Shown: in pieces, positions 54,912-59,518 of the stretch
Layout: the number at the start of each line of letters is the position of its first letter
Numbering within the stretch: the first letter of the stretch is position 1
Assembly (NCBI RefSeq): GCF_900142395.1
Contig: NZ_FRAS01000005.1
Span: 1 to 64,000 of the forward strand
DNA from: Hymenobacter psychrotolerans DSM 18569
Lineage (GTDB): Bacteria; Bacteroidota; Bacteroidia; Cytophagales; Hymenobacteraceae
Reading direction: 5' to 3'
Length of the DNA: 64,000 nt
Made by a program: the position numbers and the translations under genes
The notes under the pieces: model-generated
The model's database searches: none
What the model was told of the DNA's origin: nothing
What the model saw: the letters and a program-made list of their open reading frames with translations, nothing else

Positions 54912-55835
54912 ATGCACCCCCGCAACCGCCACTCCGCCCGCTACGATTTTCCGCAGCTTATTGCCGCCAGTCCGGCCCTCGCGCCCTTCGTGGCCCCCAA
55001 CAAATACGGCGACGAAAGCATTGATTTCTCTGATTACGCTGCCGTGAAGGCCCTGAACCAGGCCCTGCTCAAGCAGTTCTACGGCGTGGCCAGCTGGGAC
55101 ATTCCGGCCGGCTACCTGTGCCCGCCCATTCCCGGCCGCGCCGACTACCTGCACCACGCCGCCGACCTGCTGGCCGCCGCCAACGGCGGTACGGTGCCGC
55201 AGGGCAAGGCCGTGCATGTGCTGGACGTGGGCGTGGGCGCCAACTGCGTGTATCCCATCGTCGGGACGCGGGAGTACAACTGGCACTTCGTGGGCTCCGA
55301 TATTGATGGGGTGGCCCTAAAGGCAGCCAAGCACATGGTAGCTGCCAATCCGGTGCTGACCGGCCGCATCGAGCTGCGCCAGCAGTACCATGCTACTGAT
55401 ATTTTCGACGGCATCGTGAAGCCCCGCGAGGAGTTTGACCTGACGGTGTGCAACCCGCCGTTCCATTCGTCGGCTGAGGAAGCGGCGGCCGGTAGCCAGC
55501 GCAAAGGCCGCAACCTGGGCTACGCCAAAACGCCCGAACCCACGCTCAACTTCGGGGGGCGCAACACGGAGTTGTGGTACGAAGGCGGGGAGGAGCAATT
55601 TGTGCGCCGCATGGTGGAGCAGAGCGTGCCGCTGGCCTCGCGGGTGCTGTGGTTCACGTCGCTCATCTCCAAAAAGGAAACCCTGCGCAGCATCCACTAC
55701 TTCCTCTCCAAAACCGCCGCCCTCGACGTGAAAACCATCGAGCTGGTGCACGGCCAGAAAGCCAGCCGCCTCGTGGCCTGGACGTTTCAGGACGCCGAGC
55801 AGCAGCACGCCTGGGCCGCCCGCCGCTGGAAGTAA
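54912..55835 (+). CDS. rlmF: 23S rRNA (adenine-1618-N6)-methyltransferase
   Basis: 307 residues, ATG at 54912. MHPRNRHSARYDFPQLIAAS is the RlmF N-terminal signature. The SAM-binding segment is VLDVGVGANCVYPIVG and GSDIDGVALKAA; the N6-adenine methyltransferase motif NPPF starts at Asn181 (VCNPPFHSSAEEA). RNLGYAKTPEPTLNFGGRNTELWYEGGEE (in parts) and WFTSLISKKETL are further RlmF landmarks. It methylates A1618 of 23S rRNA. Length is usual. Confidence 0.95.
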   Translation: MHPRNRHSARYDFPQLIAASPALAPFVAPNKYGDESIDFSDYAAVKALNQALLKQFYGVASWDIPAGYLCPPIPGRADYLHHAADLLAAANGGTVPQGKAVHVLDVGVGANCVYPIVGTREYNWHFVGSDIDGVALKAAKHMVAANPVLTGRIELRQQYHATDIFDGIVKPREEFDLTVCNPPFHSSAEEAAAGSQRKGRNLGYAKTPEPTLNFGGRNTELWYEGGEEQFVRRMVEQSVPLASRVLWFTSLISKKETLRSIHYFLSKTAALDVKTIELVHGQKASRLVAWTFQDAEQQHAWAARRWK

Positions 55836-55909: not shown

Positions 55910-58228
55910 CTATTCCACTACCACGCGGCTAACCTGCGTGGACTCGGGCGTCACAATCTGTACCAGGTAGAGGCCGGCTTTCAGCTGCGAGCCGTCGATG
56001 GCGACGTCCTGGCCGTTGAGGGCGCGGGTCTGCTCCAGCACGACGCGGCCCGTTACGTCGCGCAGCGTGATGGTGGCGGTGCGGGCTTTGGTGGCTTCCA
56101 GACGTAGCGAGAACTGGCCGCGCGTGGGGTTGGGGTATACCTGCACGCTGCTTTGCTGCACCGTGGCGGTTTTGTTCGACAGAATCAGGTTGCAGACCTG
56201 CACGCCCCGGTTCTGCTCGGCAATGCGGGCCGCAAACTCCTGGTAGTACTGGTTCGTGATGCGGGCATCGTGCACGATGAGCGTGTTTTCGTCGTTCTCG
56301 GTGTTGGCCGAGAGGCTCCAGTTGTGCGAGCCCACAAACACCTGCGGGTCCGACTGTGAGGCGCCGGCATCAATGATGGCGTATTTGTGGTGCATGATGC
56401 CAGGCGTATTTTTCACCATGGCGCGGGTGCCCATGGCCTGGCGCACGAGGCGAAACACGCTGCCGGCATTGGTAGAGCTGGTGTCGTTATTGAGCATCTC
56501 GGAGCAGGCTGCAAGGTTGCGCAGCAGCACCTGGTCGCGGATGGCACGCCCGATGTCGGTCTGCGTGTTGAGCATTGTGGCAATGTGCAGGTCGTTGTCG
56601 GCGGTGCGGATGGCGTCGATGAGGCGCCCGTTCACGTTGTCGGTCGGCGAGAACCACGACTCTACCAGCTTGCCCCCGATGTTGAGGTAGTGCGGCGTGT
56701 TGTCGGTTTTGCGCGAGCCAAACTTCACGGCGCCGGTGGTGGCGCCGCTGCCGCCCCACATTTCCTCAAACTCCATCTTGTACACGCGGGCCAGGGCCTG
56801 GTCCTGAATCACGATGACGTTGTTGCGGTCCGTGGAAAGCTGCGCCTGCGTCCAGTTGGTGGAGCCGGTCCACACCCACGGCACGTTGGGGTTCGTGTCT
56901 TCGGCATCAATGATGACGAATTTGTTGTGCATGATGCCCTGAATCGTGCCCGAGCCAGTCTGGGTGCGGCCCGTTCTGGCAATAGCCGCGGTCAGGCCCG
57001 GTACGCTCACGTTGTTGTTGTCGTCCTCATAAATCACGCGCACCCGCACGCCGCGGGCGTGAGCGGCATTCACGGCCGCCAGAATCGTGGGGCTGTTCCA
57101 GTTGTAGATGGCAATGTCGAGGGTGGTGGTGGCGCGGCCGATGTAGCGGGCCAGCGTATCGGCTACGGCGCCGCTGGGCAGAAACAGGGCGTTGTTGCCG
57201 GGCAGCGCGTAGGTGTTGTTCACCGGGTTGGTGAAGTAAGTGCGCATCTTGCCCGACGACAGCGAAGCCGTAATCATGGGCACCACCCGCGACTCGGAAA
57301 GGCCGGTGGCGTTGGTGGAGCTGGCTTTCACGTAGTACACCGTGGCCGGCGAGAGTCCCGAAATAGCCAGGCTGTGGTCGGTGGTGTTGGTGGTGCTGCT
57401 CACGGCCGTGAACGGGCCGGCTGCCGTAGTGGCGTACTCCAGTCGGGTGTTGCCGGGGTTCTGCGTGGTGAAGTGCACCGTGAAACCCGACGTGGTGATG
57501 TTCGTCGGGAAAGGCGTGTTCAGCACGTTAGGCGTGTTGCCCTGCAGGAAATCGGCGTAGAGTCGGGGCAGCAGCTGGTAGCCCGGGCCGGTAGGGCCGG
57601 GCGCCGTAGTCGTAAACTGGCTCATGATGCCTACCGCATCGAAAGTGCCGGTAGGCGAGGGTTTGCCAATCAGGCCGTAAGGGCCGGTAGAAGCGGCATT
57701 CACGTAAAGCACCGTGGCCGCGTTGTTGTTGATGCGGAACGTGGTGCTGCTGAACGAGGTGACGGGCGAGCCGGTCGTGGTGGTGATGGACGTAGCGCCG
57801 TTCAGGCGCACCAGCTGGCCCTCATACTGCTCGGCAAAAGCGGCTGTGAAGCCGCCGGCCGGAAACGCCACGGGCGTGGGCAGCGGCCGGTTGCCGGCCA
57901 GCACCGTCAACGACGACACGGGGTCCAGCTCCAGCAGGCCCCGGAAGTCCTTGAGTGTGCCCGTCACGATAATGGAGTCGCCGGGCACGACGCCGTTGGT
58001 CAGGGTAGTGGAGTACACTCCTATGCCGGCCGTGCCATCCTGCATGTAGCGGATGGCGCCCAGCTCGGGCCCGTTCGTGACGATGCCGCGCACCGTGACG
58101 GTGGCGCCGGACGTGTTGAAGGCCGGAGCCTGCGCCCGCGCGGCGGCAATGGTAATAGCCGTTTGGGCCTGGGCCGGCCGGAATGCGGCCATGCTGCAGA
58201 GCAAAGCCAGAAGAGTAAAGTTCTTCAT
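55910..58228 (-). CDS. Secreted phospholipase-D-like protein with type IX secretion sorting domain
   Basis: 772 residues. Signal peptide MKNFTLLALLCSMAAFRPAQAQ; an OB/DUF5689-like domain (about 25-220, VTVRGIVTNGPELGAIRYMQDGTAGIGVYS in parts); a fibronectin-type-III-like domain (about 235-325, TSGFTVHFTTQNPGNTRLEY); two phospholipase D (HKD) half-sites, His434-x-Lys436-x4-Asp441 with GSTNWT and His613-x-Lys615-x4-Asp with GSHNWS; and a C-terminal type IX domain (about 695-772, VQVYPNPTRGQFSL, GLYLVQIVTPE). Both HKD motifs are intact, so it should be an active phosphodiesterase, possibly a nuclease or phospholipase, delivered to the cell surface or medium. Confidence 0.88.
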   Translation of the reverse strand: MKNFTLLALLCSMAAFRPAQAQTAITIAAARAQAPAFNTSGATVTVRGIVTNGPELGAIRYMQDGTAGIGVYSTTLTNGVVPGDSIIVTGTLKDFRGLLELDPVSSLTVLAGNRPLPTPVAFPAGGFTAAFAEQYEGQLVRLNGATSITTTTGSPVTSFSSTTFRINNNAATVLYVNAASTGPYGLIGKPSPTGTFDAVGIMSQFTTTAPGPTGPGYQLLPRLYADFLQGNTPNVLNTPFPTNITTSGFTVHFTTQNPGNTRLEYATTAAGPFTAVSSTTNTTDHSLAISGLSPATVYYVKASSTNATGLSESRVVPMITASLSSGKMRTYFTNPVNNTYALPGNNALFLPSGAVADTLARYIGRATTTLDIAIYNWNSPTILAAVNAAHARGVRVRVIYEDDNNNVSVPGLTAAIARTGRTQTGSGTIQGIMHNKFVIIDAEDTNPNVPWVWTGSTNWTQAQLSTDRNNVIVIQDQALARVYKMEFEEMWGGSGATTGAVKFGSRKTDNTPHYLNIGGKLVESWFSPTDNVNGRLIDAIRTADNDLHIATMLNTQTDIGRAIRDQVLLRNLAACSEMLNNDTSSTNAGSVFRLVRQAMGTRAMVKNTPGIMHHKYAIIDAGASQSDPQVFVGSHNWSLSANTENDENTLIVHDARITNQYYQEFAARIAEQNRGVQVCNLILSNKTATVQQSSVQVYPNPTRGQFSLRLEATKARTATITLRDVTGRVVLEQTRALNGQDVAIDGSQLKAGLYLVQIVTPESTQVSRVVVE

Positions 58229-58363: not shown

Positions 58364-59392
58364 TTACATAATATTCACTTCGGGGTGCAGCTCCACCCCA
58401 AACTTTTCGCGCACCGAAGCAATGATTTCATAGGCCAGGTCGCGGATGTCCTGGCCTTGGGCGCCGCCGTGGTTCACGAGCACCAGCGCCTGCCGGTCGT
58501 GCACGCCGTGGGGGCCGCGGCGCAGGCCTTTCCAGCCGCACTGCTCAATCAGCCAGGCGGCCGGCACCTTCACGCCGCCGGGTACCGGGTAGCCGGGCAG
58601 GGCCGGGTACTGGCTTTTCAGCTCGTCGAAGCGGGCCTGCGAGATTTCCGGGTTCTTGAAGAACGAGCCGGCATTGCCGATCTGGGCGGGGTCGGGCAGC
58701 TTGCTGCGCCGGATGCTGCTCACGGCCTCGCTGATGTTGCGCGGCGTGGGCTCGCCGGCCACGCCCATATCCTGCAGCGTAGTCTGGATGTCGCCGTAGC
58801 GCACGTTGGGGCGGGCCTGGCGGTGCAGGCGCAGCAGCACGCCGGTCACGATGAACTGGTTTTTGAGCGCACCCTTGAACACACTTTCGCGGTAGCCGAA
58901 GCCGCACTCCGCCGCCGAAAACGTGCGCAGCTCGCCGGTAGCGGTTTCCAGCGCCTCCAACTGCTCAAAGGTGTCTTTCAGCTCCGCGCCGTAGGCCCCG
59001 ATGTTCTGCAGCGGCGCCGCGCCCACCGTGCCCGGAATCAACGACAGGTTTTCGATGCCGCTCAGCTCCTGGTCCAGCGCGTACTGCACCAGCCCGTGCC
59101 AGCTCTCGCCGGCCCCGGCCCGCACCAGCGCCGAGGCATCATCCTGACTGATGATTTCCAGGCCCCGGATTTCGTTTTTGAGCACTACGCCCTCGAAATC
59201 CTTGGTGAACAGCAGATTGGAGCCGCCGCCCAGCACCAGCTTCTCGCTTTGCTGCACCTCGGGCAAAGCCAGCAGGGCCCGCAGCTCATCCACGGAAGAG
59301 AAACGGGCAAACAGGCGGGCCTTTACCTCAAGGCCGAAGGTGTTGTAGGGGCGGAGCGAAACGTCGTGTTCGAGAACGGGAGCCGAAGCCAT
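58364..59392 (-). CDS. murB: UDP-N-acetylenolpyruvoylglucosamine reductase, type II-like
   Basis: 342 residues from the ATG at 59392 (MASAPVLEHDVSLRPYNTFG). FAD-binding VLGGGSNLLFTKDFEGVVL, SLIPGTVGAAPLQNIGAYG, FGYRESVFKG (active-site Ser region: conserved RxSxFK replaced as YRESVFK), KLPDPAQIGNAGSFFKNPEI and WLIEQCGWKG are those of E. coli-type MurB. It reduces the enolpyruvyl group to form UDP-MurNAc in peptidoglycan synthesis. Length matches the E. coli type (about 340). Confidence 0.95.
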   Translation of the reverse strand: MASAPVLEHDVSLRPYNTFGLEVKARLFARFSSVDELRALLALPEVQQSEKLVLGGGSNLLFTKDFEGVVLKNEIRGLEIISQDDASALVRAGAGESWHGLVQYALDQELSGIENLSLIPGTVGAAPLQNIGAYGAELKDTFEQLEALETATGELRTFSAAECGFGYRESVFKGALKNQFIVTGVLLRLHRQARPNVRYGDIQTTLQDMGVAGEPTPRNISEAVSSIRRSKLPDPAQIGNAGSFFKNPEISQARFDELKSQYPALPGYPVPGGVKVPAAWLIEQCGWKGLRRGPHGVHDRQALVLVNHGGAQGQDIRDLAYEIIASVREKFGVELHPEVNIM

Positions 59393-59419
59393 AGCAGGAG
59401 CGGTAAGGAGGTTGCCCGG

Positions 59420-59427
59420 CAAAGGTA
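59420..59427 (-). promoter_or_regulatory. -7 promoter box of murB
   Basis: Minus-strand TACCTTTG, exact TAnnTTTG match, 27 bases upstream of the murB ATG. Confidence 0.55.
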
Positions 59428-59518
59428 AGGGGCCCGGCGCTCTATGAAACACGCCACCCCGGCACCGCCAACGTGGGCAGGCCGGGGCGGCGCAGATTAT
59501 TGGAAGGAAGCACGCGAA

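What the first reader, a model, noticed from the sequence alone, without database searches (positions are those of the whole stretch)
55910..58228. Type IX-exported protein with two intact phospholipase-D half-sites
An OB-like domain, a fibronectin-type-III-like domain, two complete HKD motifs (His434/Lys436/Asp441 and His613/Lys615) and a type IX sorting domain in one protein. Both motifs keep all catalytic residues, so this should be an active surface or released phosphodiesterase. It could act as a nuclease in DNA scavenging, as a phospholipase, or against neighbouring cells; no immunity gene is adjacent.
Basis: partly seen in the sequence, partly recalled or inferred. Interest (0 to 1): 0.5.

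Follow-up and report, generated by a model that had tools for sequence, protein, structure and literature searches.

The report
Probable secreted two-lobed PLD nuclease
This Hymenobacter-type bacterium most likely exports an enzyme that cuts DNA or RNA, built from a nucleic-acid-grip domain, a linker domain and two fused catalytic halves, probably to feed on or tidy up nucleic acid outside the cell rather than to attack membranes or rival cells.

Summary
In detail: 55910-58228 (-) encodes 772 aa with an OB domain, an Fn3-like domain, two PLD lobes with complete HKD and GSxN motifs, and a type IX sorting domain. The genome has SprA, a PorU-type sortase, GldK and GldM.

Best reading: a secreted nuclease. 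Each catalytic H, K and D is kept in 66 or 67 of 67 aligned rows; dN/dS is about 0.1. Its nearest solved sequences are the Zucchini/Nuc/NucT group. VIA puts PLD3 first by fold, though Foldseek nearly ties PLD3 with a Serratia phospholipase and viral F13. Homologous OB (DUF5689) domains precede three unrelated nuclease folds: 23 of 29 divergent DUF5689 proteins examined, 0 of 21 lipoprotein-type ones, 11 of 11 BLAST relatives.

A toxin role is not supported: the locus is syntenic among housekeeping genes. Relatives often carry an upstream OB-Fn3 gene without catalytic or sorting domain, but it is present or absent independently of the enzyme, so it is no obligate immunity gene. Activity and substrate are untested.

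The parts
55910..58228 (-). whole gene, 772 aa, type IX-exported two-lobed PLD protein
   Evidence: Pfam
58166..58228 (-). signal peptide, residues 1-21 (AQA|Q cleavage, read by eye)
   Evidence: sequence; no signal-peptide program was run
57515..58162 (-). OB-fold (DUF5689-related) domain, residues 23-238; the OB barrel itself is about residues 23-120
   Evidence: models; fold search; homology to DUF5689 proteins
57269..57508 (-). fibronectin-III-like domain, about residues 241-320
   Evidence: sub-threshold Pfam; fibronectin hits with the A1 profile; strands in the model
56756..57151 (-). PLD lobe 1 (PLDc_2), residues 360-491
56906..56929 (-). HKD motif 1, residues 434-441 (H434, K436, D441)
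   Evidence: H 67/67, K 66/67, D 67/67
56855..56866 (-). GSTN of lobe 1, residues 455-458
   Evidence: N458 66/67
56228..56623 (-). PLD lobe 2 (PLDc_2)
56369..56392 (-). HKD motif 2, residues 613-620 (H613, K615, D620)
   Evidence: 66/67 each
56321..56332 (-). GSHN of lobe 2, residues 633-636
   Evidence: N636 66/67
55916..56140 (-). type IX secretion type A sorting domain, residues 697-771
58364..59452 (-). murB, upstream neighbour on the same strand; context only
   Evidence: synteny
54912..55835 (+). rlmF, downstream neighbour; context only
   Evidence: synteny

Best explanation
It is a secreted nuclease. The protein crosses the inner membrane by its signal peptide and the outer membrane by type IX secretion, ending on the surface or in the medium. 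The OB domain grips DNA or RNA, the Fn3-like domain is a spacer, and the two PLD lobes fold together into one active site made from both HKDs. By established PLD chemistry one histidine attacks the phosphodiester to form a phosphohistidine, the other acts as general acid, and no metal is needed. The likely preference is single-stranded or frayed DNA or RNA, and the likely role is nutrient recovery or turnover of matrix DNA. Shown here by computation: domains, motif conservation, secretion genes, predicted fold, purifying selection, an OB module homologous to ones that precede other nucleases. Inferred: activity, substrate, strandedness, endo or exo mode, role.
For: (1) The family profile hits PDB chains of Zucchini/MitoPLD (2.7e-21), Nuc (1.8e-15), NucT (1.7e-10) and PLD3 (1.8e-4); the only PLD-lobe hit named simply a phospholipase up to 0.01 is Serratia 7e0m, 2.5e-8, whose authors note nuclease-like features and ask whether it cuts nucleic acid (PMC8004604). 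(2) Model pLDDT 87.8; VIA ranks PLD3 first (Z 32.9, 3.0 A, 332 aligned), PLD4 at up to 32.2, then 7e0m 30.7, F13 30.1, phosphatidylserine synthase 27.0, human PLD2 26.8, Streptomyces-type PLDs at most 24.1. (3) Both lobes have GS, the pattern PMC8004604 gives for nucleases. (4) The OB model aligns with RPA and LysRS OB domains. (5) Homologous OB domains precede EEP (17), PLD (5) or Endonuclease I (1) domains in 23 of 29 divergent DUF5689 proteins and Endonuclease I in 11 of 11 BLAST relatives L112-L122. (6) In ExeM and Xds, deletion of the OB region abolishes nuclease activity (PMC6085458, PMC6746945). (7) Type IX genes present. (8) dN/dS 0.08 and 0.13.
Against: No activity is shown. Foldseek nearly ties PLD3 (5.0e-15), 7e0m (8.9e-15) and vaccinia F13 (1.6e-14), and F13 is called a viral phospholipase (abstract opening), so fold alone does not settle the substrate; the lowest PLD4 row in VIA (30.9) is tied with 7e0m. 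The Zucchini/MitoPLD chains are named 'cardiolipin hydrolase' in the PDB, although the NucT paper treats Zucchini as an endonuclease. NucT models match far below cut-off (80.9 of 297 bits). PMC10783504 says two HKDs in one chain is typical of lipid enzymes, dimers of single-HKD chains of nucleases. Net charge of each lobe is -2, whereas NucT has a positively charged groove; no electrostatic map was made. Pfam's DUF5689 model does not hit this protein; the link runs through homologues. 0 of 21 lipoprotein-type DUF5689 proteins and 6 of the 29 divergent ones show no nuclease domain. Foldseek's single OB hit under 0.001 is YgiW, not a known nucleic-acid binder to my knowledge.
Confidence: 0.78

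Rival explanations
1. A secreted phospholipase D (or other lipid phosphodiesterase) acting on membrane or detrital lipids.
For: Two HKDs in one chain, typical of lipid PLDs (PMC10783504). Vaccinia F13 and Serratia 7e0m are close in fold. MitoPLD chains carry the name cardiolipin hydrolase.
Against: Streptomyces PLD, PLD1/2 and phosphatidylserine synthase do not appear among profile hits up to 0.01 and lie lower in VIA (27.0 or less). GS/GS motif. OB domain homologous to those before other nuclease folds.
Confidence: 0.1
2. A surface or released antibacterial toxin with a missing or self-tolerated immunity function.
For: Secreted hydrolase with conserved catalysis; an adjacent OB-Fn3 gene in 46 of 120 genomes could be imagined as immunity.
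Against: Syntenic murB-enzyme-mutS2 locus across the genus; purifying selection. The adjacent gene is missing or broken in 24 of 70 enzyme carriers and stays without the enzyme in 11 genomes.
Confidence: 0.04
3. A DNA-capture and processing enzyme for natural transformation, cutting or thinning surface DNA before uptake.
For: A predicted surface protein with DUF5689 is essential for transformation in Riemerella anatipestifer (PMC8459023); NucT, a PLD nuclease, is implicated in H. pylori transformation and purine salvage (PMC5714352).
Against: The Riemerella protein is described with DUF5689 and DUF5017 only, no nuclease domain. nucT mutants have a mild transformation phenotype. The four nearest neighbours scanned are murB, rlmF, mutS2 and a sugar transporter, not competence genes. 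50 of 120 genomes of the genus lack the enzyme at the threshold used.
Confidence: 0.08

Closest known systems
NucT (H. pylori), Nuc (pKM101), Zucchini/MitoPLD
   Same: HxKx4D and GSxN motif, PLD lobe, clear sequence similarity
   Different: those are single-lobe chains that dimerise; here two lobes are fused in one chain with OB, Fn3-like and type IX sorting domains; far below the NucT equivalog cut-offs
PLD3/PLD4 lysosomal 5' exonucleases
   Same: two lobes in one chain; first in the VIA list; degrade nucleic acid outside the cytosol
   Different: 15-20% identity; HKE, not HKD, in lobe 2 of PLD3; animal membrane proteins, no OB or sorting domain noted in the passages seen
ExeM / Xds / NucH extracellular nucleases
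   Same: OB region before the nuclease domain, needed for activity; weak match of the NCBIfam model to residues 65-151
   Different: EEP catalytic domain; lamin-tail domain in front; envelope-associated by other means
DUF5689 - Ig-like - Endonuclease I - sorting domain proteins (L112-L122, mostly Crocinitomicaceae and Flavobacteriales by record title)
   Same: 33-39% identity over the OB region, Endonuclease I in 11 of 11 and sorting domain in 10 of 11, same order of parts in the four tabulated
   Different: the catalytic domain is Endonuclease I, an unrelated fold
Serratia plymuthica PLD (7e0m)
   Same: two-HKD extracellular protein, close fold
   Different: called a phospholipase by its authors; no OB, Fn3 or sorting domain mentioned in the passages seen

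Membership tests
PLD (HKD) superfamily, PLDc_2 | HxKx4D and GSxN motif, PLD fold | tested here: met
PLD (HKD) superfamily, PLDc_2 | both half-sites complete | tested here: met
   H434/K436/D441 and H613/K615/D620, 66 or 67 of 67 rows each
NucT equivalog (NCBIfam) | score over the curated cut-off | tested here: not met
   best 80.9 bits against 297
NucT/Nuc/Zucchini type nuclease | single lobe, active site made by a homodimer | tested here: not met
   two lobes in one chain
NucT/Nuc/Zucchini type nuclease | cleaves nucleic acid without metal | not testable with these tools
   needs an assay
Phospholipase D proper | hydrolysis of phospholipid head groups | not testable with these tools
   needs an assay
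PLD3/PLD4 exonucleases | two-lobed fold of the PLD3 type | tested here: inconclusive
   first in VIA (Z 32.9) but near-tied with 7e0m and F13 in Foldseek
DISARM DrmC | NCBIfam cut-off and DISARM neighbours | tested here: not met
   33.7 bits against 133; PADLOC DrmC hits partial, best 1.7e-7; nearest neighbours murB, rlmF, mutS2, a sugar transporter
Type IX secretion cargo | type A sorting domain at the C-terminus | tested here: met
   TIGR04183 55.6 bits against 23
Type IX secretion cargo | host has the type IX apparatus | tested here: met
   SprA 2303 bits, sortase 1213, GldM 418, GldK 470 with neighbours in the frame; other components not searched
Type IX secretion cargo | actually found outside the cell | not testable with these tools
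   needs a secretome
DUF5689 (PF18942) | match to the Pfam model | tested here: not met
   no hit up to E 1 in this protein, no match in its genome at 0.001; homologues L112-L122, L098 and L100 do match
OB fold | OB barrel | tested here: met
   predicted model only: VIA Z 11.3, 1.9 A, 81 aligned to an archaeal RPA domain, 3e0e
Toxin / immunity pair | obligate adjacent immunity gene | tested here: not met
   none in the window; upstream OB-Fn3 gene intact in 46 of 70 enzyme carriers and alone in 11 genomes

The most novel reading that the evidence does not exclude
The OB (DUF5689-related) domain is a phylum-wide nucleic-acid capture module of Bacteroidota surfaces, combined with at least three unrelated nuclease folds and also used without a nuclease in a transformation-essential surface protein. 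In Hymenobacter the enzyme works with a separate OB-Fn3 protein, probably periplasmic since it has a signal-like N-terminus but no sorting domain and ends in a basic stretch. One would cut nucleic acid outside; the other would bind incoming fragments inside the outer membrane, making a two-part system for foraging on or taking up extracellular nucleic acid.
Probability: 0.15. Interest if true: 0.6.

Novelty: new variant of a known kind. Interest (0 to 1): 0.35.

Why it matters
If right, the little-studied DUF5689 domain gains a concrete function (binding nucleic acid next to a nuclease), one that also bears on how Bacteroidota take up DNA, since a DUF5689 protein is essential for transformation in Riemerella (PMC8459023, passages). 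It would add a probably metal-independent PLD-type enzyme to the secreted nucleases of this phylum, beside the EEP and Endonuclease I types seen here.

Tried and rejected
Antibacterial toxin: set aside on synteny, selection and lack of an obligate partner. DISARM DrmC: weak partial matches, no DISARM neighbours. NucT orthologue: far below cut-off. OB-Fn3 neighbour as immunity gene: not supported by its distribution. No tree of the PLD superfamily was built. VIA lists are a second look at Foldseek's own hits, and the list for the whole model tested mainly the PLD lobes, that for the OB model mainly its residues 1-98; families absent from them are not excluded.

Literature. Searches joining PLD or nuclease with type IX secretion, PLD-like motifs or Hymenobacter: 0 papers; in the papers listed (8; 15 of 265; 12 of 19; 9; 15 of 20) no title or abstract opening describes this architecture; most of those texts were not opened. 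DUF5689 gave one paper. What was seen: PMC8459023, PMC10783504, PMC8004604, PMC6085458, PMC6746945, PMC12568770: passages (the last one not used). PMC5714352: abstract, outline and the first part of Results and discussion. PMC11879855 (F13) and all others: listing with the opening of the abstract.

Limits of counts. DUF5689 sample (148 genomes drawn over the phylum, 75 with a match): examined were the 21 top-scoring proteins (L125-L145; 'lipoprotein-type' is my reading of an invariant cysteine near the N-terminus) and 29 more (L146-L174): 9 whose loci the tool gave, and the next 20 genomes down the E-value list, one match each, passing over six genomes of a genus already taken. Lower matches were not examined, so 23 of 29 is for this pick. 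L148, L152 and L153 are cut by the locus end; L152, counted among the six without a nuclease domain, lacks its C-terminal part. In one search EEP domains were assigned by motif, agreeing in number with Pfam's 17. The 67 rows hold near-duplicates and leave out L098 and L100; exceptions are L111 (three catalytic positions differ, possibly misaligned) and L110 (D620N). For the OB-Fn3 gene 'intact' means an open frame of at least 325 aa; 14 of the 57 have a stop inside the matched span, and the four of these that I hold as loci or can compare (L021, L022, L040, L042) have whole ORFs; G272 matches over 2-237 of 308 only, in a genome 81% complete, so it may be cut. Lists were read off by eye and compared as sets; the 46 adjacent pairs were checked by eye for lying on one contig within about 2.4 kb. 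The dN/dS values are for the 23 pairs over 78% identical among 21 distinct ORFs; the sorting-domain check there is a motif pattern, and Pfam found no sorting domain in the 5 of 5 OB-Fn3 proteins scanned.

Full report
What is there. The ORF at 55910-58228 on the minus strand encodes 772 residues. In order: a signal peptide (read by eye), a domain of about 215 residues that models as an OB barrel with an extension, an Fn3-like domain, two PLDc_2 lobes, and a type A type IX sorting domain.

Which organism. The nearest named relative found is Hymenobacter duratus BT646, 95% identical over residues 1-772; the genome is taken as Hymenobacter from this and from its 'same genus' relatives. It gives 100 sorting-domain matches, 3 of them marked below the cut-off, and matches over the cut-off to SprA, the PorU-type sortase, GldM and GldK.

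Is it intact and used? In an alignment of 67 rows each catalytic H, K and D of both motifs is kept in 66 or 67. Against H. duratus BT646 and Hymenobacter sp. BT190, dN/dS is 0.08 and 0.13. The two-lobed part occurs in 70 of 120 genomes of the genus and in other Bacteroidota.

Nuclease or phospholipase? By sequence the family profile matches Zucchini/MitoPLD, Nuc, NucT and PLD3, and among chains named simply phospholipase only Serratia 7e0m on the PLD lobes. The Zucchini/MitoPLD chains bear the PDB name cardiolipin hydrolase, though the NucT paper treats Zucchini as an endonuclease. The authors of 7e0m note nuclease-like features in it (PMC8004604). By fold VIA puts PLD3 and PLD4 first (Z 32.9 to 30.9), then 7e0m (30.7), vaccinia F13 (30.1), phosphatidylserine synthase (27.0), human PLD2 (26.8) and Streptomyces-type PLDs (24.1 or less). 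In Foldseek, PLD3, 7e0m and F13 nearly tie, so the fold does not decide alone. The GS/GS pair fits the nucleases. On balance the lobes favour a nuclease.

The OB domain is the stronger argument. It models with high confidence and aligns by VIA with ssDNA-binding and anticodon-binding OB domains; Foldseek's one hit under 0.001 is YgiW. Its BLAST relatives L112-L122 carry Endonuclease I in 11 of 11 and a sorting domain in 10 of 11. Among 29 divergent DUF5689 proteins from a phylum-wide draw, 17 carry an EEP domain, 5 a PLD domain and 1 Endonuclease I, without overlap, and 22 a sorting domain. The other 6 show none of these three, one of them being cut short; and none of the 21 top-scoring, lipoprotein-type proteins does. 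So, in this sample, the module goes with nucleases outside the lipoprotein group. Pfam's own model misses the window protein; the link is by homology. In ExeM and Xds the OB region is required for nuclease activity (PMC6085458, PMC6746945). A DUF5689 protein is essential for natural transformation in Riemerella (PMC8459023).

Surroundings. In the window the gene lies between murB (same strand, 135 bases upstream) and rlmF, with mutS2 beyond. Of 40 Hymenobacter-named loci with the enzyme, murB is found upstream in 39 (the locus of the other, L050, is cut short) and mutS2 downstream in 34 within the stretch held. This is a stable chromosomal locus, not an island.

The upstream partner. In 27 of those 40 loci a second ORF sits just upstream on the same strand, homologous to about residues 1-330 only: OB and Fn3-like, no PLD lobe. 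The 21 distinct ORFs checked end in a K/R-containing tail, lack the sorting-domain motif looked for, and in 23 pairs have dN/dS 0.10-0.33; Pfam finds no sorting domain in 5 of 5 scanned. Across 120 genomes: 46 have enzyme and intact partner, 2 enzyme and a broken partner, 22 enzyme alone, 11 partner alone, 39 neither. The window's genome has the enzyme alone: the partner query finds there only the enzyme's own N-terminal part. In 5 of 5 partner-only loci held (L039, L040, L042-L044) the partner is still next to murB, so loss of the enzyme from an older pair is likely. Such a pattern does not fit an obligate immunity gene. Its lack of a sorting domain suggests that it stays in the periplasm (inference).

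Mechanism. The two lobes should form one active site, as in PLD3 (PMC10783504). The histidine chemistry, metal independence and substrate preference are carried over from characterised relatives and untested here. NucT prefers single strands (PMC5714352), and PLD3 cuts single-stranded DNA and RNA, so a single-strand preference is the best guess. The genome also encodes an Endonuclease I protein with a sorting domain, which could supply double-strand cutting (inference).

Verdict. A real, intact, conserved and very probably secreted enzyme, most likely a nuclease (0.78). The single gene is fairly ordinary. The recurrent OB module across three nuclease folds, and the OB-Fn3 partner, which I found described nowhere in the searches listed, are the parts worth following.

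Noticed in passing
L049, L051-L053, L055, L059-L070 and others, upstream of the PLD gene: A conserved OB-Fn3 protein without catalytic or sorting domain, ending in a basic stretch; an open frame of at least 325 aa in 57 of 120 Hymenobacter genomes, one of them perhaps cut.
   Followed up: partly
L176:491-2854 (-), elsewhere in the window's genome: A second probable type IX-exported nuclease: Endonuclease I, Calx-beta, lamin-tail and sorting domains, 787 aa.
   Followed up: partly
L098:4293-8315 and L100:4278-8312: Longer relatives (1340 and 1344 aa) with four DUF5689 stretches besides two PLD stretches and a sorting domain.
   Followed up: no
genome G025, contig C103: The OB-Fn3 partner stands beside a fragment of the PLD gene with a stop inside: the enzyme appears to be decaying while the partner stays.
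   Followed up: no
L111:2692-4383: An Ignavibacteriae relative whose catalytic positions differ in the alignment (K436N, H613S, K615S), perhaps an inactive member or a misalignment.
   Followed up: no
control genomes: The DUF5689 family also rings over its cut-off in Bacillus subtilis; the gene was not looked at (YhcR, an OB-containing nuclease, is my guess from memory).
   Followed up: no
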